Below, piece after piece: positions 10,657 through 58,395 of a DNA stretch of 64,000 nt (positions are counted from its first letter, which is position 1; each line of letters starts with the position of its first letter). The translations under genes were made by a program, and so were the position numbers. The DNA comes from Bacteroidales bacterium. Its GTDB lineage: Bacteria > Bacteroidota > Bacteroidia > Bacteroidales > UBA932. The notes beneath the pieces were generated by a model, which ran no database searches, had not been told where the DNA came from, and saw only the letters and a list, made by a program, of their open reading frames with translations. The DNA is taken from NCBI GenBank assembly GCA_017469745.1, contig JAFUFS010000006.1, positions 38,627 through 102,626 on the forward strand, read 5' to 3'.

Positions 10657-10790
10657 CTGAATAGCAGGCTATACCACCTGTAACCACTGCCACCCTCGGC
10701 ACGTTAAGAGGGGGGACCGGAGCGGAACACAGTGAAGCGAGCGGTGGGGCCGCGAAGCGGCGGTTACTGGGGGTATAGTCTGCTATTCGG
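10657..10790. repeat. Palindromic element, intergenic copy with long arms
   Basis: Imperfect inverted arms of 31 bases (10657-10687 and 10760-10790, about five mismatches) enclose a 72-base core. The core is almost identical to those at 14299-14430 and 19636-19770. The left arm begins at the base after the aroD-aroA stop, and the right arm supplies the TAG stop of the convergent lipoprotein gene. Position and foldback suggest a two-way transcription terminator. The arms differ completely from the arms of the other two copies. Confidence 0.85.
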
Positions 10791-12288
10791 AACTACCGTT
10801 GGAAGAGGACTCCCGGAAGGAGAGGGTGGTGCCGGGGGAGGTGCGCATGGTGTGGCCGATACGATGACGGTCGGTGCGGACACGGCCCTTTATGAATTCG
10901 GGAATATTGTAGGAGAACATCAGGTCTGAATAGAACTTAGCCGGCTTCCTCTGCGGCAGCAGGAACGGCTTGTGCTCCTGCCCGTCCTCATCGATGAAGG
11001 TCATGTAGAGGCGCGTGTAGAGCCCGTCGATGCGACGGCTCGAGAACACCATGAAACGGCTGTTTGAACTCCAGCTGTGGTAGCTGTCCACATTGCCGGA
11101 ATTAGCCTCCGACATAGGCCTGATCGCACCGTCTGAAAGATTGACGGCATAAAGGTCAGAATCCTTGTGCCAGATTGAGAAATTCCCGAAACCATGCTTA
11201 GTAAAGACCAGCGTCTTCCCATCGGGAGACACCCTCGGGAAAGATGCGCTTGAAGAATCAGCGGCATGGAAAAGGGTGTCTATCTTCGATCCGACAGTCC
11301 CGGTCTCAGGATTGAAATCAACCCTGCAGAGATTGTAGTGGACATCCCTGTAACCCTCCGGCATAGGGTCGACCGCCGGAGCCGAGCAGAAATAAAGGCT
11401 CCTGCCGTCCGGAGAGAATGTCGGGAAGGTCTCGAAAGCATCTGAACGCATCAGCTCTGGGTTGGAGAAGACCTGCATGGTCTGCGTGTCCATCACGACC
11501 ACATCCGATTCCGCATCGAAAACCTCGATCCTGTTGTGGTCGGCAGCATGGAACGACTGGAAAGTCTTGTTAACCGAGAAAGCTATGTAGCGCCCTTCCG
11601 GATGCCAGTAGGGATAGACCAGGTTGGAAATGGTCTTGTCCGTCTTGGTGTTCAGTTTCTCGACATGGGAACCGTCCATGTAGACAGTGCCTCCGTTGGC
11701 AGCTCTCATGTGGAAGACCATCCTGGAAGGATCCTGCATCCTGAACGAGTGGCAGTTGACGCAGTTGTTGTCCGTCAGACGGTTCTCGTAGATAGGAGTC
11801 TGCTTGAAAGAAGCTATATTCCTCTGGTACAGTCCCATCTTGTTCCAGAGGCCGTAGCCGGGGGCGATCAGACGGTAAGCCACATAAGGATCGGCCTCAT
11901 ATTCACTGACATTCACCTTGAAAGGGCTGTAAGAGAGCCACTTCCCATTGCGGCGCACCACCACGGTGAAGTCCAGGCTTCCTCCTTTCGAGGCTTCGAG
12001 AAGATTCCGCCACTTGCGCATAGGGATCCTGAAACCGTGCTTACCTGCCTTGATTCCGATCCTGCGACCGTCAGCAGACGTTATTTCAAGGAAAGCCTTT
12101 TCTTCTCCGCCGATGGTGAAATCAAGAGGGGCTATGTTGCATGGGACGGTCACTTCGGAATAGTCGGGGAACATCCCTTCAGGCTGGCCGTCGAGCGTTC
12201 CTGCAACATTGACTTTCGAAGAGCAGGAAACTGCAGCCAGAAGCACCGGCACCATGAATATTCTTAAGAATCTTTTCATCTCTTTCAT
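10783..12288 (-). CDS. Lipoprotein with CxxCH motif and TolB-like WD40/PD40 propeller
   Basis: This 501-residue protein has a signal ending in the lipobox AAVSC (Cys22). A beta-sandwich-like N-terminal part follows, then a single haem-binding motif CVNCH (176-180). The remainder is a beta-propeller with repeated TFSPDGRSLYF and RVSPDGKTLVF type blades. Bacteroidota relatives are usually labelled TolB-like or cytochrome c biosynthesis proteins; direct evidence of function is lacking to my knowledge. The last residues are encoded by the arm of the palindromic element, which also gives the stop. It follows the DUF6057 gene by six bases at the end of the suf-ispE run. Confidence 0.75.
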   Translation of the reverse strand: MKEMKRFLRIFMVPVLLAAVSCSSKVNVAGTLDGQPEGMFPDYSEVTVPCNIAPLDFTIGGEEKAFLEITSADGRRIGIKAGKHGFRIPMRKWRNLLEASKGGSLDFTVVVRRNGKWLSYSPFKVNVSEYEADPYVAYRLIAPGYGLWNKMGLYQRNIASFKQTPIYENRLTDNNCVNCHSFRMQDPSRMVFHMRAANGGTVYMDGSHVEKLNTKTDKTISNLVYPYWHPEGRYIAFSVNKTFQSFHAADHNRIEVFDAESDVVVMDTQTMQVFSNPELMRSDAFETFPTFSPDGRSLYFCSAPAVDPMPEGYRDVHYNLCRVDFNPETGTVGSKIDTLFHAADSSSASFPRVSPDGKTLVFTKHGFGNFSIWHKDSDLYAVNLSDGAIRPMSEANSGNVDSYHSWSSNSRFMVFSSRRIDGLYTRLYMTFIDEDGQEHKPFLLPQRKPAKFYSDLMFSYNIPEFIKGRVRTDRHRIGHTMRTSPGTTLSFRESSSNGSSE

Positions 12289-12293
12289 GGCCG

Positions 12294-14075
12294 TCAGATC
12301 TTTTTGAACATGAAATAGTACCAGTAGGTGTCGGAGAAGGACTTCATGTCCCGGATCGGATTGCCGTTGCTGGCTCCGAGTTCAAAGAAACGCCTTTTGA
12401 AGGACTGGTAGCGGGAGAAGGTTGCGTCCGTCACTCCGTGCTCCCTGCAGTAGGCCTCGTCCTCCTCGGAGTATACGAGCACCGCCTCCTGAAGATGAAG
12501 GTTAAGCGACCCGTCGGGATTGTAGGCCTTGGGATCGTTCTCGATGTAAGCCTTGAGGCCATCTACGTCCTTTGCGAGAAGCATGTAGGCCACGTAATAG
12601 TCCCTGGCTGCGGCATTGTCCGGAGCTACCCCCAGGATCAGTTCGAGGTCCTTGTGAGGGTCCATGCCTACGAAATGGTCGGCAGGAGGGATGCAACGCC
12701 TCAGGTAGCCGAGCTCGGGATCTGCCTCGACAGCCTCATCATTCCAAAGGAACCGGCGCATCTCGCTGGCCTCCTTCCTGTACCCCCAGGTCTTTTCCAT
12801 TTCGGAAATATACTTCCCTGCGACCTCGTAGGCACCCCAGGCCAGGTTGGTCCTGATCAGGCGCATCATCATCGAAGGGCTGCCGAAACGGACTCCCACG
12901 CTCGCGTCGAACGCCTTGTTCTGCGAATGTGCCACATTGCCCATCTGGTAGTAGATGTGGCTGTCGAGTGCTATGACGTCGGGAATCCTGTCGCTCTGAT
13001 CGTCTGCTGCCACGAGGGACATGATCCCACTCTGGGGATAGTCGAAGAGTTTGTCGAGCAGCTGCCCTTTGTGCGAAAGAGCCAGGTTGCGCACATTCAT
13101 CATGAGGAAATTCTCATGCCTTGCCGTCCGGTCGGAAAGTATTGAATCCCAATCCTCTGCCACCACGAAATGGTTCAGGCGGAGCATGTCATAGTACTTC
13201 TTGTCCATGTGGGAAGGAATCCGCAGAAGGGCGACTATAAAAATCAGGAGGGCGGCGCTGGCCACCACGACCTGGGCCACATTGCCCTTGAGCTTCCCGG
13301 CAAGTACGGCCAAGACTGCCACAAGCGGAAGTGCTATCCATGATGCATGAATATAAAGTCCCGGATGGACCAGAGGTTCATAATAGAAATCCTGAAGCAG
13401 GGCCAGCCTCATGCTCTGAATGAAGCCGAGGCGGACAGCGACCCAGGCAAAAAGAAGGACGGCGGCCAGGGAGACGGCACCGAGGTACCATTGATCTTTG
13501 CCCGAAAGTGCATCAAGAAGGATGACACAGACGGCGAACAGAACTGCGGCAGAGCCGACGAGCCAGTAGAGGAGAACCGACATCAGAACTCCCGCGATGA
13601 CTCTTCCGAGCTTGCTCTTCTCCTGAAACACAGCGACATACAACCAAAGGAATATAGCCACCATGATGAAGGCCACGAATCCCTGGTAATAATACAGCGA
13701 ATCGCCCAGGGCTCCTTGCTGGAAGAAAACGGGGAGGAAACAAAAAGGAAGGACGGTAATCGAAGCTCCGGCCTTCTTGAGGGTTTTCCAAAGGATAAGG
13801 GCTGTGCAGGCTCCCAACAAGGCAGTCTGCAAGGCTCCGGCCCAGGGAAGCTTGAAGAACTGGACGAAAAACTGCGATGCAACCATGGCGAATCCTCCTA
13901 TGCTTCCCAACTTCGACAGGATGTCGGGGCAGTCATAGAGGAAAAGCTGGTTCTGCTCCCTGTAAAAGAACGTGAATTCCTCCCATTTTTGAAGAAGGAC
14001 ACAGGAAAAAGCAGTCGCCACGATTGCCACGGCTGCCGCGATCCATTTGAATATGTCTTTTTTCGGAAGAGCCAT
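12294..14075 (-). CDS. DUF6057 family membrane protein
   Basis: The 593-residue protein has about ten hydrophobic membrane spans in its first 300 residues (WIAAAVAIVATAFSC, LPWAGALQTALLG, VIAGVLMSVLLYWLVG and others). A soluble C-terminal half rich in helical TPR-like pairs follows. Length, order and pairing with the haem-motif lipoprotein downstream fit the Bacteroidota DUF6057 family. The layout recalls glycosyltransferase-C-like membrane proteins, but no catalytic motif is evident. It starts 14 bases after ispE, so it is probably co-transcribed with the suf genes. Confidence 0.7.
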   Translation of the reverse strand: MALPKKDIFKWIAAAVAIVATAFSCVLLQKWEEFTFFYREQNQLFLYDCPDILSKLGSIGGFAMVASQFFVQFFKLPWAGALQTALLGACTALILWKTLKKAGASITVLPFCFLPVFFQQGALGDSLYYYQGFVAFIMVAIFLWLYVAVFQEKSKLGRVIAGVLMSVLLYWLVGSAAVLFAVCVILLDALSGKDQWYLGAVSLAAVLLFAWVAVRLGFIQSMRLALLQDFYYEPLVHPGLYIHASWIALPLVAVLAVLAGKLKGNVAQVVVASAALLIFIVALLRIPSHMDKKYYDMLRLNHFVVAEDWDSILSDRTARHENFLMMNVRNLALSHKGQLLDKLFDYPQSGIMSLVAADDQSDRIPDVIALDSHIYYQMGNVAHSQNKAFDASVGVRFGSPSMMMRLIRTNLAWGAYEVAGKYISEMEKTWGYRKEASEMRRFLWNDEAVEADPELGYLRRCIPPADHFVGMDPHKDLELILGVAPDNAAARDYYVAYMLLAKDVDGLKAYIENDPKAYNPDGSLNLHLQEAVLVYSEEDEAYCREHGVTDATFSRYQSFKRRFFELGASNGNPIRDMKSFSDTYWYYFMFKKI

Positions 14076-14089
14076 GGGATAAATATACG

Positions 14090-15172
14090 TTATTTTTTGA
14101 AAAGGGCGAACAGGGCCGATCCGGAGCCGGACATGGCGGCATAGGAGGCGCCGGCATCATAGAGGGACTGCTTGATGGCGGCGAGTTCCGGATGGAGCTT
14201 GAAGACCGTCGTCTCAAAGTCGTTCACCACCAGTCCCTTCCACTCTTCCACCGGCCTCTTCAGCAGCTCCCGCAAACCGTCCCCGATACCTGGTTCTGTC
14301 GAAGGGACTATAGGTTCCGGGGACACTGCCACCCTCGGCACGTTAAGAGGGGGGACCGGAGCGGAACGTAGTGAAGCGAGCGGTGGGGCCGAACGAAGAG
14401 AGGCGTCCCCGGTGCCTATAGTCCCTTCGATGGAGCATCGGGGCACGATGCCGTCATAGGCTTCTTTGGTGGAGACACTGATGCCCTCGGGGACGATGAC
14501 CTTAAGGTCGTAACCATTGAGGTCAAGGTCGAACGGCTCCAGGATCTCCCCGCGGCCGGTGCCGATCATCGGCCGGTTCCAGACGAAGAAAGCACAGTCG
14601 CTGCCAAGTCTGGAAGCATATTCAGAAAGCCTCTCTTCCGAAAGGCCGAGGCCGCAAATCTCGTTCAGCGCCTTCAGGGTGAAGGCCGCATCAGCGGATC
14701 CGCCACCGAGCCCCGCTCCCACGGGAGCCTTTTTTTCAAGGAATATCTTTACCGGCGGCAGGTCGAAATCCTCCGCCAGAAGGAAGTAAGCCTTGGCGCA
14801 CAAGTCCTTGAGCGGATCCCAGTCCACTCCCTCTTTCCTCGCGATGGTGATCATCAGCTTCCCATCCTCGGACAGCCCTTGTACCAGCTCTCTGCCACAA
14901 TCCGGAGGGGCAGTCCGGCCCCGGCGAAGTCCATCCTCGCTTCGCTGCGGCTGAGTATCGCCTAAGGCCGGCTGCTCCTCCGGATGCATGCCGTCGTATT
15001 GGGCGAAAAGAGAGGCGGATGTGCGGCTGTAATCATCGCCGGCGATGACCTCAAGATTGTCCCCGAACTCATGACAAGGAACAAACAACGTCTCGATGTC
15101 ATGATAGCCATCGGGCCGCTTCCGGATCACATTCAACCCGAAGTTAAGTTTCACATTCGTCCGGAGAACCAT
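14090..15172 (-). CDS. ispE: 4-diphosphocytidyl-2-C-methyl-D-erythritol kinase with two element-derived insertions
   Basis: This GHMP kinase of the MEP isoprenoid pathway phosphorylates CDP-ME. The N-terminal block (LNFGLNVIRKRPDGYHDIETLF), the ATP loop PVGAGLGGGSADAAF, and the C-terminal AAMSGSGSALFALF are intact. At 360 residues it is about 70 longer than usual. The excess lies in two stretches encoded by palindromic elements: residues about 63-91 (14900-14985) and about 248-291 (14299-14430). Without them the length is about 287, normal for the family. Both insertions keep the frame and fall in loops between conserved blocks, so the enzyme may still work. It begins eight bases after sufD. 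Confidence 0.9.
   Translation of the reverse strand: MVLRTNVKLNFGLNVIRKRPDGYHDIETLFVPCHEFGDNLEVIAGDDYSRTSASLFAQYDGMHPEEQPALGDTQPQRSEDGLRRGRTAPPDCGRELVQGLSEDGKLMITIARKEGVDWDPLKDLCAKAYFLLAEDFDLPPVKIFLEKKAPVGAGLGGGSADAAFTLKALNEICGLGLSEERLSEYASRLGSDCAFFVWNRPMIGTGRGEILEPFDLDLNGYDLKVIVPEGISVSTKEAYDGIVPRCSIEGTIGTGDASLRSAPPLASLRSAPVPPLNVPRVAVSPEPIVPSTEPGIGDGLRELLKRPVEEWKGLVVNDFETTVFKLHPELAAIKQSLYDAGASYAAMSGSGSALFALFKK
14299..14430. repeat. Palindromic element inside ispE (large copy)
   Basis: The arms TCGAAGGGACTATAGG (14299-14314) and its exact reverse complement (14415-14430) are extended inward by CCGGGGAC/GTCCCCGG after two unpaired bases. They enclose the core shared with 10657-10790 and 19636-19770. 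The span is 132 bases, a multiple of three, and is read antisense to the core as Arg/Ser/Ala/Pro-rich peptide. The arms are unrelated to those of the other copies. Confidence 0.85.
14900..14985. repeat. Smaller palindromic element inside ispE
   Basis: Arms at 14900-14920 and 14966-14985 (ATCCGGAGG.GCAG.CCGGCC and its complement, one substitution and one extra base) enclose about 45 bases. The centre carries CTCAGCCGCAGCGAAGCGAGG on the reverse strand, similar to the GAGCGNAGCGAAG repeats elsewhere. It adds about 29 residues to the N-terminal third of IspE without breaking the frame. Confidence 0.7.
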
Positions 15173-15180
15173 AACAGTTT

Positions 15181-15850
15181 CTATTTTGCCAGCGAGCGGA
15201 TGGCGGATTCTATAGCGGAGGCAAGAGCCTCATCCTCAAGGCCTTCCAGGACAGGAGCAACAAACGAAATCATCTGCAGGACCTTGGCCTCATCCTCCGG
15301 GATGCCGCGGGAACGCATGTAGAACTGCTCGTCCTCGTTGAGTTTTCCGACGGTCGCGCCGTGAGAGCACTTGACGTCATCGGCATAGATCTCAAGGCGG
15401 GGCTTTGTGTTGACCCTAGCCTCGTCTGAAAGGACAATGTTGTGGTTCTCCTGATAAGCCTCTGTCTTCTGGGCATCCGGAGCCACGATGATCTTTCCGA
15501 AGAAAGCACATTTGGACTGGCCGGAAGCCAGACCGTTGAAAAGCTGGTGGGAGGTACAGCCAGGGGCCCGATGGTGCATGGTGATGTCGAACGTGACTTC
15601 ATCCGTGCCGTCGGAAATGTATATTCCTTTAAGATCCGCTTCTGCGCCCGGACCGACCAGATCGACAGTGACCGGAATCCTGGCCGACACTCCCGGCAGC
15701 ACCACGAAGGTCTCCTCGAGTTTCTCACCTTCGCCGACTACGAATGAATATTCCTCCTGCGACCGGCTGCCATCGATGATGATAACCCTGGCCGCGGGAC
15801 CCGTCGGAACAGGCACCGGAGTGGACACGTAGTTGCCGTGGTCTATCTCT

Positions 15851-15870
<20 letters not shown>
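15181..15870 (-). CDS. sufD: Short SufD-like Fe-S scaffold protein
   Basis: This component of the SufBCD iron-sulfur assembly complex is a right-handed beta-helix that pairs with SufB and binds SufC. The C-terminal signature is present: EAYQENHNIVLSDEARVNTKP, then DVKCSHGATVGKLNEDEQFYMRSRG. The protein is only about 230 residues from the ATG at 15870, which overlaps sufC by 20 bases. Typical SufD is over 400 residues, so the N-terminal helical domain and part of the helix are missing. No broken remainder is visible, since sufC occupies the upstream sequence. It is followed by ispE after eight bases. Confidence 0.87.
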
Positions 15871-16591
<721 letters not shown>

Positions 16592-16718
16592 AATATCCTG
16601 TTATGTAACTATTTATTAATCAAGCTTTTCCTTAATTTAACGGTCTTAAAAACAGCACCGTTGAATTATTTAATAATCTAATATTCAATCACATACGTAC
16701 CAGCGCATTCTTCCTCTT

Positions 16719-17378
16719 TTATTTTCCGTCTCTGTACAACTTGAACCAAGTCCAGAGCGACCAGATTCCGTTGATGAGGTACAGGGCGCTGACGATCGGC
16801 ATGAACACCAGGCCGGCGCTGAGGTACAGGGTTATGTTGGCAGCATTGACCACCAGCCAGACGATCCAGCAGTCCCATTTTTTCTGGGCTGAAAGGAACT
16901 GGGCCAGGAGGGTCAGCATCAGCACGAAGGAGTCCAGCCAAGGGGTCGGGTCAGGACTGAAGATCCCGACTCCCCAATGAGTTCCGAGTTGGCTGAGGAC
17001 ATATCCCCAGACAGCCCCGGCGACTACGACGACCGTCAAGGCCACGCACCAGCCTTTCATGTCCAGACGGCTGACTTTCAGGGCGGTAGCGTCACCGGCA
17101 CTCTTCTCATCTTCCTTCGGGTGGGTCCATCTCCAATGACCGAAGGCATTGATAGCGAAAGCTATCGGCTGGAGGAGCATGGCCGAATACAGGTGCCTCT
17201 GCCAGAACAGCATGAACAGCAGGATGTTATACAAGTATCCCACCCAGAAATTGTACTTGCTGTTCCTTCCGGCCATCACCACGCAGGTAAGGCCCGCGAT
17301 GACACCGATCAGTTCGAGCCAGCTAACACCGGCTCCTCCCATGGTAAAGGCTATATTGTTGATGTCGAATATATTCAT
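16719..17378 (-). CDS. pnuC: PnuC-type nicotinamide riboside/NMN transporter
   Basis: This 219-residue inner-membrane protein of the PnuC family, facilitative importers of vitamin B3 ribosides, has about seven spans. Family marks are the ELIGVIAGLTCVVMAGR first span, the NFWVGYLYNILLF and FGHWRWT segments, and the WIVWLVVNAANITLYL motif with its Trp and Asn residues. Its start overlaps the sufB stop as TAATG, so it is translationally linked to sufB. No kinase partner gene (nadR) is present. Its place between sufB and sufC is unusual. Confidence 0.9.
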   Translation of the reverse strand: MNIFDINNIAFTMGGAGVSWLELIGVIAGLTCVVMAGRNSKYNFWVGYLYNILLFMLFWQRHLYSAMLLQPIAFAINAFGHWRWTHPKEDEKSAGDATALKVSRLDMKGWCVALTVVVVAGAVWGYVLSQLGTHWGVGIFSPDPTPWLDSFVLMLTLLAQFLSAQKKWDCWIVWLVVNAANITLYLSAGLVFMPIVSALYLINGIWSLWTWFKLYRDGK

Positions 17379-18826
17379 TATCCTACTGAACCTTCAAGTG
17401 AAACTTGGAGAAGCTTGGTGGCTTCTACCGCAAACTCCATAGGAAGCCGTGAAAGCACCTCATGAGCATAGCCGTTGACGATCAGGCCCACAGCGTCCTC
17501 GGCGTCCAAGCCGCGCTGGTTGCAGTAGAACAGCTGCTCGTCGCTGATTTTAGAAGTAGTTGCCTCATGTTCGACTATGGCTGTCGGATTGAAGCTCTGG
17601 ATGTCCGGGAAAGTGTGGGCTCCGCACAGCGACCCGATCAGCAAGCTGTCGCACTGGGAATAGTTCCTCGCACCAATGGCTCCTGAATTCATCCTGACGA
17701 GGCCGCGGTAGCTGTTCTGGCTGTGACCGGCGGAAATACCCTTGCTGACTATGCGGCTCTTCGTACCCCGGCCGATGTGGACCATCTTCGTACCGGTGTC
17801 CGCCTGCTGGTAGTTGTTCGTCACCGCCACTGAATAGAATTCCGAAGAGGAATAGTCTCCCTTCAGGATCGTAGAAGGATATTTCCATGTGATGGCGGAG
17901 CCGGTCTCGACCTGGGTCCAGCTCAAATGGGCCCCGCTATCCTTGCATATTCCCCTCTTGGTCACGAGATTCAGGATTCCTCCCCTGCCCTGGGCGTCTC
18001 CAGGGTACCAGTTCTGGACCGTGGAGTACTTCACGTCGGCATCCTTCTCAACAATGATCTCCACCACGGCAGCATGGAGCTGGTTCTCGTCCCTCATCGG
18101 AGCAGTGCAGCCTTCCATGTAGCTCAGCGAAGATCCTTCGTCAGCCACGATCAAGGTTCTTTCGAACTGGCCGGTTCCGGCCGCGTTGATCCTGAAATAG
18201 CTGGAGAGGTCCATGGGGCATTTCACCCCCTTGGGAATATAGCAGAAGCTGCCGTCGCTGAACACAGCCGAATTGAGGGCTGCGAAGAAATTGTCCCCTG
18301 ACGGAACCACGCTTGCAAGATATTTCCTGACCAGGTCGGGATGCTCCTTTACAGCCTCCGAGAAGCTGCAGAATATTATTCCTTTCTCTGCCAGTGACGC
18401 CCGGAAGGTCGTTGCCACTGAGACAGAATCAAACACAGCATCCACTGCCACGACTCCGGCCAGAGCCTCACGCTCCCGTACAGGAATGCCCAGCTTCTCG
18501 AAAGTTTCTTCAAGCTTAGGGTCTATTTCCTTGGGCCTTTCAGAGTCCTTCTTGGGGGCTGCGTAATAGATGATATCCTGAAAATCGATCTCCGGCATGT
18601 CGAGATGGCCCCACTCGGGCATCTCCATCTTCTGCCATTTCCTGAAGGCGTCCAGACGGAACTCCAGCAGCCACTCCGGCTCCTGCTTCAAGGCGGAAAT
18701 CGTACGTATGATGTCCTCGTTCAGTCCTTTAGGAATAAAGTCCTGGCGGATGTCCGTCACGAACCCTTCCTTGTACTCCTGCGAGGTTATCCCTTCGATT
18801 ATCTTGTCTTCTTCTCTCTGATCCAT
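17378..18826 (-). CDS. sufB: SufB Fe-S cluster scaffold protein
   Basis: This is the core scaffold on which SufBCD builds iron-sulfur clusters. The 482-residue protein is of normal length. Conserved blocks include the [11 protein letters not shown] region, [23 protein letters not shown], and [11 protein letters not shown] near the C-terminus. The start is MDQREED at 18826. The ATG at 18847 would lie inside the promoter box at 18845-18852, so it is rejected. It heads the run sufB-pnuC-sufC-sufD-ispE-DUF6057-lipoprotein. SufS and SufE/SufU are not in the window. Confidence 0.95.
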
Positions 18827-18844
18827 CGTCAAATCTCCATTATG

Positions 18845-18852
18845 CAAAGATA
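18845..18852 (-). promoter_or_regulatory. -7 promoter box for sufB
   Basis: Reverse-strand TATCTTTG lies 18 bases before the sufB ATG at 18826. It is paired with an identical divergent box for aroC 11 bases away. Confidence 0.7.
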
Positions 18853-18863
18853 GCGAAAATAAG

Positions 18864-18871
18864 TATCTTTG
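18864..18871 (+). promoter_or_regulatory. -7 promoter box for aroC
   Basis: TATCTTTG ends 19 bases before the aroC ATG at 18891. The closeness of the two divergent boxes means the polymerases would compete for or share the upstream DNA. Confidence 0.7.
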
Positions 18872-18890
18872 CGTTGGTGCATAATATTGA

Positions 18891-20024
18891 ATGAATATGA
18901 ATACGTTCGGCAGGAATTTCAGGGTACAGGTGTTCGGCGAGTCTCATGGCGAGGCCATAGGAGTTGTCGTGGACGGCGTTAAGTCGGGGATTCCTCTCTC
19001 CAAGGAGGATTTCACCGAGGACATCCTGCGCCGCAAAAGCGGTGCGAAGGGCACTACGCCAAGGATCGAATCCGATGAGCCTGAGATCCTAAGCGGGGTC
19101 TTTGAAGGCCACACCACGGGAGCCCCACTCGCTATCATATTCAGGAACAACAACACAAGGTCCGGTGACTATGATGCCTTGAGAGATGTGCCCAGGCCCG
19201 GCCATGCAGACTTCACTGCTGCTGTCAAGTGGAACGGCTTCAACGACCCTCGTGGCGGCGGCCATTTTTCAGGCCGGCTGACCCTGCCCCTGGTAGCTGC
19301 CGGAGTGATTGCCAAGAAGCAGTGCGCCCTTTCTTCCAGTTCAGAGATTGGGTTCAAAGCTGAGCTTAAAGAAATCGGCGGAGAGACAGATCCGTCCAAA
19401 TGGGATGCCCTCCTTGAAGAAACTTCACGTGAAGGAGATTCCCTCGGCGGTATTGTAGAATGCAGGATTGATAACGTTCCAGCCGGCCTGGGTAATCCTT
19501 TTTTCGATTCAGTCGAAGCTCTTCTTTCCCATGCCGTTTTCTCAATTCCTGGAGTACGCGGCATCGAGTTCGGTGACGGTTTCTCAGCCGCCCGCATGAA
19601 AGGATCGGAGCATAATGATCCCTTGATGCTTCATTCCGAAGGAGCCAGGCCGGCCATCGAGGACAATGCCACCCTCGGCACTAGAGGGGGGACCGGAGCG
19701 GAACGTAGTGAAGCGAGCGGTGGGGCCGAGCAAAGCGAGGCGTCCGAGAGGCCGGGCCTGGCTCCTTCGGGCGTACAATCAGCTAAGAACGGGGCCGGAG
19801 GAATCAACGGGGGTATTACGAACGGAGCGCCTATCGTGTTCCGCGTGGCCTTCAAGCCGACCTCCAGCATCTCAAAGACCCAGAAAACCCTCAACATCAA
19901 GACCGGCGAAACTGTCAGCCTCAACGTTCCAGGCCGTCACGATGTCTGCTTCGCTTTACGTACCCCGGTCATAGTCGAAGCCGTCGCAGCCATCGTCCTG
20001 GCTGACTTGGCGAACAGCATTTAA
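18891..20024 (+). CDS. aroC: Chorismate synthase with an element-derived insertion
   Basis: This enzyme forms chorismate from EPSP with reduced FMN, the last step of the shikimate pathway. The signatures are [11 protein letters not shown] at the start, the RPGHADF motif near residue 104, [21 protein letters not shown], and [17 protein letters not shown] at the end. Residues about 249-294, between GSEHND and NGAGGINGG, come from a palindromic element (19636-19770). They read as a Gly/Ala/Glu/Arg/Ser-rich stretch containing [17 protein letters not shown]. The insertion is 135 bases and keeps the frame. ATG at 18897 is an alternative start. The gene converges with the TrpB2-type gene. Confidence 0.95.
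19636..19770. repeat. Palindromic element inside aroC
   Basis: The arms (CCGAAGGAGCCAGGCCGGCC at 19636-19655, its complement with one extra G at 19750-19770) enclose the shared core. The span is 135 bases, a multiple of three. Compared with the other two cores, this one lacks three bases (CACTAGAGG instead of CACGTTAAGAGG), a change that also keeps the frame. The arms are unrelated to those of the other copies. Confidence 0.85.
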
Positions 20025-57726: not shown

Positions 57727-58260
57727 ATGAAAAGGACTACAATAGCTGCAGCTTTCGCTGCCCTGGTCATCACAGTAGGCTGTGCAACGACTGTAAGCCT
57801 TCCCGACCGGCTCGACAGGTTCGTCGAGAAGACTGAGAAGGAATACAAGAACTACTCCCAGGAGGACTGGAAGAAGTCCCGTGAAGAATATGACGCCCTT
57901 GTTGCTGAAATGAAGGAAAACTACGATTCCTACACGACTGCCGAGAAGGTTCGCACCATGCAGGCTATGGGAAGATACGGTACAATGGCTCTTGGAAGCG
58001 AGATTTCCGGAGTTTCCGAAGAGATCGGCGACGTCCTGGAACAGATCCCCGAGACCATCAACGACATGATCGACCAGATCGACACCGCCGCCCTTCGCAA
58101 ATCTGTCGAAGGAATCAAGACCGGCATAGAAGGACTGGTTGAAAGCATCGACACGGCAAGGATCCGCAAGTCCATCGAAGGGTTGACCCAGAGCATCGAC
58201 ACTGCGAAGCTCCGCCAGAAGCTTGAGGCCGTGGTCAAGATCCTTTCAGGAGAAGAATAA
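57727..58260 (+). CDS. Lipoprotein with helical repeats (DUF6565-like)
   Basis: The 177-residue lipoprotein has lipobox VITVGC. The mature part is highly charged and helical. Residues 115-170 contain three related repeats of the form I-D-T-A-x-L/I-R-K-S/L-x-E-G spaced about 19 residues, probably a coiled coil or amphipathic helix bundle. It resembles short Bacteroidota lipoproteins labelled DUF6565, but that match is from memory and loose. The stop abuts the palindromic element at 58261. Confidence 0.6.
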   Translation: MKRTTIAAAFAALVITVGCATTVSLPDRLDRFVEKTEKEYKNYSQEDWKKSREEYDALVAEMKENYDSYTTAEKVRTMQAMGRYGTMALGSEISGVSEEIGDVLEQIPETINDMIDQIDTAALRKSVEGIKTGIEGLVESIDTARIRKSIEGLTQSIDTAKLRQKLEAVVKILSGEE

Positions 58261-58385
58261 TAAAGAGGCTGACCAAAAAAAGATTCTTCACTTCGTTCAG
58301 AATGACAGTTGTGTCAATGACAGTTGTATGTCATTCTGAGGCAGGTCTTACCTGCCGAAGAATCTTTTTTTAGTCAGTCTCTTTA
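58261..58385. repeat. Palindromic element between convergent genes
   Basis: Arms of 29 bases (58261-58289 and 58357-58385, two mismatches) begin TAAAGAG and run through seven As into AGATTCTTC. Inside are two facing GATTCTTC...AGAATGACA repeats and a nested perfect hairpin GGCAGGT-CTT-ACCTGCC (58340-58356). It starts at the base after the lipoprotein stop and ends 11 bases before the convergent ppiD stop, so it probably terminates both transcripts. Confidence 0.85.
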
Positions 58386-58395
58386 CTATATTCTG

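What the first reader, a model, noticed from the sequence alone, without database searches (positions are those of the whole stretch)
10657..19770. Palindromic element family: shared core, private arms at each site
Three elements of 132-135 bases (10657-10790, 14299-14430, 19636-19770) share a nearly identical core of about 65 bases. Each core is enclosed by inverted arms of 16-31 bases that pair with each other within the copy but have no similarity between copies. A simple transposon would carry the same ends everywhere. Either the arms covary to keep a stem while the sequence drifts, which is odd beside a nearly invariant core, or insertion creates an inverted duplication of target DNA. The second would be a mobility mechanism I cannot match to a known class. 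Behaviour is closest to Rickettsia palindromic elements and REP/BIME sequences, but the sequence is different.
Basis: partly seen in the sequence, partly recalled or inferred. Interest (0 to 1): 0.9.

Follow-up and report, generated by a model that had tools for sequence, protein, structure and literature searches.

The report
Mobile knotted hairpin with private arms
The three repeats belong to a large family of apparently mobile DNA hairpins in gut Bacteroidales whose knotted centre is conserved, while the long outer stem differs from place to place yet its two sides tend to change together, even inside enzyme genes.

Summary
The family has about 20 copies in this genome and occurs in 122 of 200 species genomes of the genus. 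The core is a fold: hairpin P2 with a loop-to-downstream pseudoknot, plus hairpins P3 and P4, closed by stem P1 (the private arms). Two-sided base changes support each helix. No Rfam family matches.

Arms belong to the locus. Copies with near-identical cores at different sites share only about 7 nt of arm; copies at one site in related species share about 93%. There the arms often change in concert (13 two-sided against 14 one-sided changes), and 7 of 24 same-site pairs face opposite ways. Published work links both to template switching between inverted repeats. More G·T than A·C mismatches hint that one strand's fold matters. 118 of 217 copies lie inside long open frames, several of them housekeeping enzymes.

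How a new copy gets its arms was not observed. Outermost bases sometimes look like an inverted copy of target, but 'empty' sites can also be deletions, and at glyA a core loss is the simplest reading. RAYT-like transposases co-occur but do not flank the elements. The enzyme is unknown.

The parts
10659..10788 (+). Element copy 1, whole (P1 arms 10659-10685 and 10762-10788), between the convergent frames of a DHquinase/EPSP-synthase fusion (+) and a PD40 protein (-)
10686..10712 (+). Copy 1: P2 hairpin (GCC 10689-10691 / GGC 10698-10700) and pseudoknot CCCTC 10693-10697 with GAGGG 10708-10712
   Evidence: sequence; pairing of these helices supported in other copies
10716..10760 (+). Copy 1: P3 (ACCG 10716-10719 / CGGT 10742-10745) and P4 (10750-10760)
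   Evidence: sequence read by eye; covariation of P3/P4 was counted on cores of the other main type only
14299..14430 (+). Element copy 2, whole; in frame inside the IspE-type GHMP kinase ORF 14090-15172 (-), element strand opposite to the gene
14328..14351 (+). Copy 2: P2 GCC 14328-14330 / GGC 14337-14339 and pseudoknot CCCTC 14332-14336 with GAGGG 14347-14351
   Evidence: sequence
19636..19770 (+). Element copy 3, whole; in frame inside chorismate synthase AroC ORF 18891-20024 (+), in the variable loop after SEHND (residues 249-294 of 377)
19668..19688 (+). Copy 3: P2 GCC 19668-19670 / GGC 19677-19679 and pseudoknot CCCTC 19672-19676 with GAGGG 19684-19688
   Evidence: sequence

Best explanation
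This is a non-autonomous mobile element whose conserved part is a folded core: hairpin P2 with a loop-to-downstream pseudoknot, plus hairpins P3 and P4. A long closing stem P1 (the arms) encloses it. Shown: (1) the core is dispersed in tens of copies and is present or absent at given sites between related species; (2) all helices, the pseudoknot included, show paired substitutions; (3) P1 is specific to the locus, not to the core lineage; (4) at one locus the two arms often change in concert, and related species can carry the element in opposite orientations. Inferred: concerted arm change and inversion are products of DNA-polymerase template switching between the arms, helped by selection for the folded + strand (G.T mismatches exceed A.C). 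Inferred, weaker: a new copy brings the core with the inner ~7 nt (about 21 nt in one subfamily); the rest of the stem is made at the new site by fold-back copying of local DNA, or by wholesale renewal soon after, and is then kept paired by template switching. Core loss by deletion leaves short palindromes. Insertions survive between genes and, in frame, in tolerant loops of enzymes. The mobilising enzyme is unknown; a RAYT-like single-strand (HUH) transposase is a candidate.
For: Family and spread. Structure: 34 type-1 cores, 94.8% of cells paired, 17 of 32 pairs with two-sided change, covariation score 0.340 against 0.110 +- 0.008 shuffled (0 of 500 as high) and at most 0.080 with slid partners. 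Pseudoknot: of 17 matches departing from CCCTC/GAGGG, found without asking for pairing there, 13 are fully complementary (CCCCC/GGGGG, CCCGC/GCGGG, CCCGT/ACGGG, CCCAC/GTGGG). Private arms: paralogs with core >=92% identical (155 pairs) fall mostly to 0.25-0.45 identity beyond 7 nt (single positions up to 0.65), orthologs (15 pairs) stay near 0.93 to 30 nt. Concerted change: 13 two-sided WC>WC, 14 one-sided from WC (9 to mismatch, 5 to G.U), 518 same, flanks 4973/5505 identical; independent changes at flank rate would give roughly 2 such doubles (my estimate). Opposite orientation: 7 of 24 same-site pairs. Strand bias: isolated arm mismatches G.T 78, A.C 44, p=0.003. Template switching is reported to homogenise arms and invert spacers: PMC8604942, PMC8794818 (passages). 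In-frame hosts.
Against: No fresh insertion with an undoubted pre-insertion site was found: the closest pair (L058/L064, 96% identical flanks) can equally be a deletion between 4-bp repeats. In L130/L265 (72% identical) most of the private arm is not in the other genome's site. Four same-site groups show arms replaced almost wholesale (L352, L345/L365, L346/L356, L349/L361), which one-base template switching does not explain. Eleven of the 13 concerted changes come from the G148/G064/G003 trio; in the G188/G042 pairs one-sided changes prevail. The same-site pairs were chosen for matching arms or flanks, which favours conserved arms. In four flipped pairs the cores also differ or were not scored as near-identical (L121/L135 60/72, L089/L109 69/77, and L346/L356, L349/L361), so re-insertion is possible there; the clean flips are L128/L269 (68/69), L123/L107 (81/81) and L096/L092 (79/81). 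The G.T bias could come from strand-biased deamination. RAYT association is imperfect: 14 element-bearing genomes have no PF01797 hit; G094, with 27 copies, lacks clade A.
Confidence: 0.6

Rival explanations
1. Insertion targets the loop of hairpins that already exist (terminators and the like), so private arms are simply the target's stem.
For: The glyA 3' site: G042 has a coreless terminator-like hairpin with the same stem as the core-bearing copy in G188. Several other sites without core hold small palindromes (L371, L260, L377, L064, read by eye).
Against: At glyA the more distant G017 also carries the core, so G042 is most simply a loss. Other empty sites show no hairpin by eye (L265, L369, L375). 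Of 185 copies only 1 has a T-rich tract (6 of 9) after the right arm and 3 an A-rich one before the left arm. Long perfect hairpins inside AroC or IspE before insertion are implausible.
Confidence: 0.15
2. A conserved functional RNA family at fixed sites: arms drift under pairing selection, and cores look alike only because of function, with little mobility.
For: Covariation in the helices, G.T excess, persistence at one site across related species, position between stop and start codons in the five sites I read.
Against: Presence/absence between the related genomes G188 and G042, in-frame insertion in many unrelated enzymes and opposite orientations in 7 of 24 same-site pairs do not suit a fixed cis function. 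Orthologous cores are 97% alike (1380/1426) where flanks are 90% alike and arms still match, so paralogs 96-98% alike to copy 1 should not have saturated arms.
Confidence: 0.15
3. A REPIN-like element moved by a RAYT (HUH Y1) transposase acting on single-stranded hairpins.
For: PF01797 proteins occur in 143 of 200 genomes and are associated with element presence: 108/35/14/43, odds ratio 9.5, p=6e-11. Clade A alone: 71/9/51/69, odds ratio 10.7, p=1e-11. Neither is corrected for phylogeny or genome completeness. A strand-specific fold and inversion in place would fit a single-strand mechanism.
Against: The core model hit 1 of 39 loci of PF01797 matches (L292, about 0.9 kb from the gene) and 0 of 30 clade A loci, some of them the same places, while described RAYT genes are always flanked by their REPs (PMC2817692, passages). 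No GTAG head seen. 14 element-bearing genomes show no PF01797 hit and 51 no clade A hit at E<1e-80.
Confidence: 0.25

Closest known systems
Rickettsia palindromic elements (RPE)
   Same: About 150 bp, palindromic, many copies, inserted in frame in unrelated genes (PMC10969869, passages).
   Different: Here the stem differs at every locus, the centre has a covarying pseudoknot, and same-site copies can face opposite ways. Sequence relation to RPEs was not tested.
REP / REPIN / BIME with RAYT transposase
   Same: Dispersed hairpins with paired changes and G.T pairs in stems; HUH Y1 proteins in the same genomes.
   Different: REPs are 20-40 bp with a GTAG or CGTC end, and rayt genes are flanked by them (PMC2817692, PMC3733652, passages); neither was found here.
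Hairpins made or kept by template switching (PMC8604942, PMC8794818)
   Same: Arm homogenisation, several compensatory changes at once, inversion of the spacer (passages).
   Different: The passages read concern short hairpins with spacers of a few bases; here the inverted part is a ~70-base folded core of a dispersed element.
Coding palindromes of Nematomorpha mitochondria (PMC6649704)
   Same: Inverted repeats kept inside working protein genes (abstract).
   Different: There both arms encode conserved protein; here the palindrome is an added loop.

Membership tests
REP/REPIN with RAYT | GTAG (or CGTC) tetranucleotide at the hairpin end | tested here: not met
   By eye on the arm listings: no common tetranucleotide at the arm ends, which are private
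REP/REPIN with RAYT | rayt gene flanked by two inverted copies of the repeat | tested here: not met
   Core model hit 1 of 39 loci (L272-L310) and 0 of 30 (L311-L340), mostly about +-1.5 kb; some of the 30 are the same places as among the 39
REP/REPIN with RAYT | Y1/HUH transposase present in genomes with the repeat | tested here: inconclusive
   108 of 122 element-positive genomes and 35 of 78 element-negative ones
Rickettsia palindromic elements | In-frame insertion in unrelated protein genes | tested here: met
   118 of 217 copies inside a stop-to-stop frame >200 aa with >=10 codons beyond each end; hosts with Pfam matches include AroC, GHMP kinase, LytB/IspH, TrmO, PurH, RsmF, MiaA
Rickettsia palindromic elements | Sequence homology to RPE families | not tested
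   No RPE sequences were fetched
MITE / IS with fixed terminal inverted repeats | Same terminal repeats in all copies | tested here: not met
   Paralogs share ~7 nt of arm, one subfamily ~21 nt
MITE / IS with fixed terminal inverted repeats | Constant-length target site duplication | tested here: inconclusive
   4-bp direct repeats at L058 (TGGT) and L130 (GCTT), also explicable by deletion
Any Rfam 15 family | Covariance-model score above gathering | tested here: not met
   Window: two tRNAs only; eight element loci at E<=1: one hit far below its gathering score, E 0.13
Template-switch hairpins | Concerted arm changes and in-place inversion at orthologous sites | tested here: met
   wholesale arm changes go beyond the described pattern

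The most novel reading that the evidence does not exclude
A new kind of mobile element: a pseudoknotted core that moves without its own ends and builds a fresh, paired stem from the DNA of each new site by fold-back synthesis (an inverted target duplication), then uses template switching to keep the stem paired and to flip itself.
Probability: 0.3. Interest if true: 0.92.

Novelty: new variant of a known kind. Interest (0 to 1): 0.76.

Why it matters
It separates two things usually lumped together in a mobile repeat: the part that moves (a conserved, knotted core) and the ends (a stem that belongs to the site). If the stem is made on arrival, that is a transposition outcome I can match to no known class. 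If it is renewed by template switching, the family is a natural recorder of that process: many independent loci and several closely related species in which inversions and paired changes can be counted. It also shows long hairpins tolerated inside enzymes that are usually needed, and offers a folded nucleic-acid family without an Rfam match for structure and enzyme work.

Tried and rejected
Rejected: one duplicated segment; a plain transposon with fixed ends; an Rfam RNA; arms as pure drift of an inherited stem (orthologs against paralogs); insertion into terminator loops as the general rule (1 of 185 copies has a T-rich tract after the right arm; polarity at glyA).

Led nowhere: clustering ORFs near elements for a partner gene gave small clusters that looked like ordinary genes, not annotated further; element length modulo 3 shows no clear bias (75/62/62), as only the net insertion matters. 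No covariance model was built. Of the 20 stretches, ten (L368-L377) were aligned; L378-L387 were only included in whole-set pattern scans. Of the 16 pairs printed, those of L086, L088, L094, L099, L108, L110 and L117 hold other repeats, remnants or unclear junctions, or were not printed (L099), and were not used for junction arguments.

Limits of counts: most scripts found copies by exact GCCACCC[TC]CGGC, so the conserved loop is partly ascertained; one search relaxed the pairing bases. Loci came mainly from a pattern requiring AGAGGG, so variant cores are under-sampled. The 34 cores of A2 were picked by eye from 95 diverse ones (of 173), all of the GGGAGGGG type; the window's own cores are of the other type. 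Same-site pairs were chosen by matching arms or flanks. The 15-23 nt distance bins (G.T 47, A.C 15) were looked at after the fact. Stop/start positions and small palindromes at empty sites were read by eye.
Full report
What was checked. The 91-base core of copy 1 finds 25 places in the own genome at E<=10, 16 of them at E<=1e-10. Extracted and folded, most of the 25 have long inverted arms that pair with each other and not with those of other copies; the weakest matches are partial or degenerate. The window is part of contig 23 of a 2.38 Mb draft genome. Named relatives in the records listed are nearly all uncultured Bacteroidales or Bacteroidia MAGs, mostly from rumen, omasum and gut (capped list). 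Contig lengths identify G188 with RUG12619 and G042 with RUG13106.

Spread. The pattern GCCACCCTCGGCN{2,7}AGAGGG occurs in 122 of 200 genomes of the genus, up to 31 times in one, with no hits of the reversed control pattern in the rows listed. In a family-level sample, which includes genomes of the same genus, it is in 69 of 299 genomes and 7 of 25 genera.

Anatomy. On the + strand (the one with GCCACCC): P1 left arm; P2 hairpin NNNNGCC-ACCCTC-GGCNNNN, often with one bulged base; a short linker; GAGGG, which pairs with the P2 loop CCCTC; P3 flanked by G-runs; P4 with a short loop; P1 right arm. I aligned 34 cores of the GGGAGGGG type (A2), picked by eye from 95 diverse ones. On them 17 of 32 pairs have two-sided changes; the covariation score is 0.340, against 0.110 +- 0.008 in shuffles and at most 0.080 with slid partners. 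The structure given was my own reading of these sequences, which favours cells paired but not two-sided change. The pseudoknot never varies in that set. A scan that did not ask for pairing at two of its five positions found 253 matches, 17 of them departing from CCCTC/GAGGG. Of these, 13 are fully complementary in four new combinations; L205 has a G.U, L103 and L366 are mismatched, L244 is a false hit in P3. Some of the 13 are likely orthologs. No Rfam family matches.

Private but shared by descent. In six genomes (104 copies) paralogs whose cores are >=92% identical (155 pairs) share the arm to about 7 nt from the core; further out identity is mostly 0.25-0.45 with single positions up to 0.65, against 0.22-0.41 in pairs with unlike cores. 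Orthologous copies (15 pairs) share about 0.93 of positions out to 30 nt. One subfamily, mostly in open frames, shares about 21 nt (GCCAGTCTGG...). Hence the outer arm belongs to the locus, not to the core lineage.

Concerted change. In 19 same-site pairs flanks are 90.3% identical (4973/5505). There, 518 arm pairs are unchanged, 13 changed on both sides to another Watson-Crick pair, 5 went from WC to G.U and 9 from WC to a mismatch on one side, 1 changed on both sides to a mismatch, 10 one-sided changes fell on pairs that were not WC, and 5 were gapped. Eleven of the 13 fall in trio pairs, two in G188/G042 pairs. Example: L351 GGCGGGAGGGTATACCACCGGAAACC and L359 GGCTGGAGGGTGTACCACCGCAAACC, each perfect in both arms. 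Four further same-site groups have arms changed almost wholesale, yet paired.

Turning in place. With flanks compared in both directions, 7 of 24 same-site pairs carry the element in opposite orientation. In three of them the cores are nearly identical (L128/L269 68/69, L123/L107 81/81, L096/L092 79/81) and inversion is the simplest reading; in the other four the cores differ more and re-insertion is possible. In the flipped pairs compared, small asymmetries of the arms travel with the core, so switch points would lie in the outer arms. Template switching between inverted repeats is reported to homogenise arms and invert the spacer (PMC8604942) and to create and maintain hairpins with compensatory changes (PMC8794818); I read passages of both.

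Strand bias. Over 224 copies, arm mismatches are G.T 157 and A.C 101; A.G also exceeds C.T (228 to 51), largely from a common mismatch near the core. Those isolated in the helix and more than 13 nt from the core are G.T 78 and A.C 44, p=0.003. A purely double-stranded mechanism has no reason to prefer one; selection on the folded + strand, or strand-biased deamination, does.

Sites. 118 of 217 copies lie inside stop-to-stop frames longer than 200 aa (mechanical). Frames with Pfam matches include AroC, GHMP kinase (IspE type), LytB/IspH, TrmO, PurH, RsmF, a phospholipase-D-like protein, a semialdehyde dehydrogenase and MiaA; the element lies between or beside the matched segments. In AroC the same loop holds the element in either orientation, a second palindrome, or His/Cys-rich inserts in different species. 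Five other sites that I read by eye (L341, L342, L349, L354, L364) lie between the stop codon of one gene and the start codon of the next.

Present and absent sites. Sixteen G188/G042 pairs were printed (flanks 72-99% identical) and six groups of the trio G148/G064/G003. L058 against L064 (96%) reads CCTTTGGT|GGCGACC without and CCTTTGGT[CGCCGCCAG...core...CTGGT]GGCGACC with the element: a 4-bp direct repeat and an inverted copy of the right flank on the left. L130/L265 is similar but only 72% identical. Both could be deletions between the direct repeats. Scars with outer arms but no core occur (L371, L260), as does a deletion between CACCCTC repeats (L374). At glyA, G188 and the more distant G017 have the core while G042 has a coreless terminator-like hairpin with G188's stem, so core loss is the simplest reading there. 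Other relatives have other hairpins at that place. Birth of the arms is not seen directly.

Enzyme. PF01797 (Y1/HUH) proteins are in 143 of 200 genomes. With element presence the table is 108, 35, 14, 43 (odds ratio 9.5, p=6e-11). One clade (alignment A1) with best E<1e-80 is in 80 genomes: 71, 9, 51, 69 (odds ratio 10.7, p=1e-11). Neither is corrected for phylogeny or incompleteness, and no other transposase was tested as a control. Clade A is not needed everywhere: G094 has 27 copies without it. NCBIfam's REP-associated transposase model hits these proteins below its cut-off. The core model hit 1 of 39 and 0 of 30 such loci. So a RAYT-like mover is a lead, not a finding.

Novelty. Eight searches of the paper library (terms on palindromic elements, RAYT/REP, Rickettsia elements, Bacteroidales structured RNAs, template switching, Cryptobacteroides) showed no description of this family in the listings I saw; subscription papers are mostly not held. 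I file it as a new variant of the palindromic mobile repeat, with a real chance that its way of getting ends is new.

Noticed in passing
window 14900-14985: A second, different palindromic element lies in the same GHMP kinase ORF: core GGCGAAGTCCATCCTCGCTTCGCTGCGGCTGAGTATCGCCTAAG with 20-28 nt arms. Relatives occur in L098, L116, L135 and L266 with partly differing arms.
   Followed up: partly
L056-L085 (AroC loci); window 18891-20024: The AroC loop after SEHND is an insertion hot spot across the genus: our element in either orientation, other palindromes, a CHSERSEES-type repeat, or long His/Cys/Glu-rich tracts.
   Followed up: partly
L402, L403, L404, L406, L367, L383 (positions): A distinct subfamily with P2 such as CTTGTCC/GGACAAG and pseudoknot CCCCC/GGGGG, larger P3 and its own arms.
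   Followed up: partly
L060, L098, L114, L119: Another GC-rich repeat (…GGGGGACTGAGGGGCGTNCCCCTCAGACTCCCT…TCGCTTCGCTCCGA) stands in or beside element sites.
   Followed up: no
L263 / L397 (G042, glyA 3' end): A coreless element stem looks like a bidirectional intrinsic terminator, AAAAATAAGCCCCTATCA-CTCG-AATGATAGGGGTTTATTTTT.
   Followed up: partly
window 58257-58389: An AT-rich inverted repeat with 33-nt arms (91% complementary) around a 67-nt spacer, unlike the element by eye.
   Followed up: no
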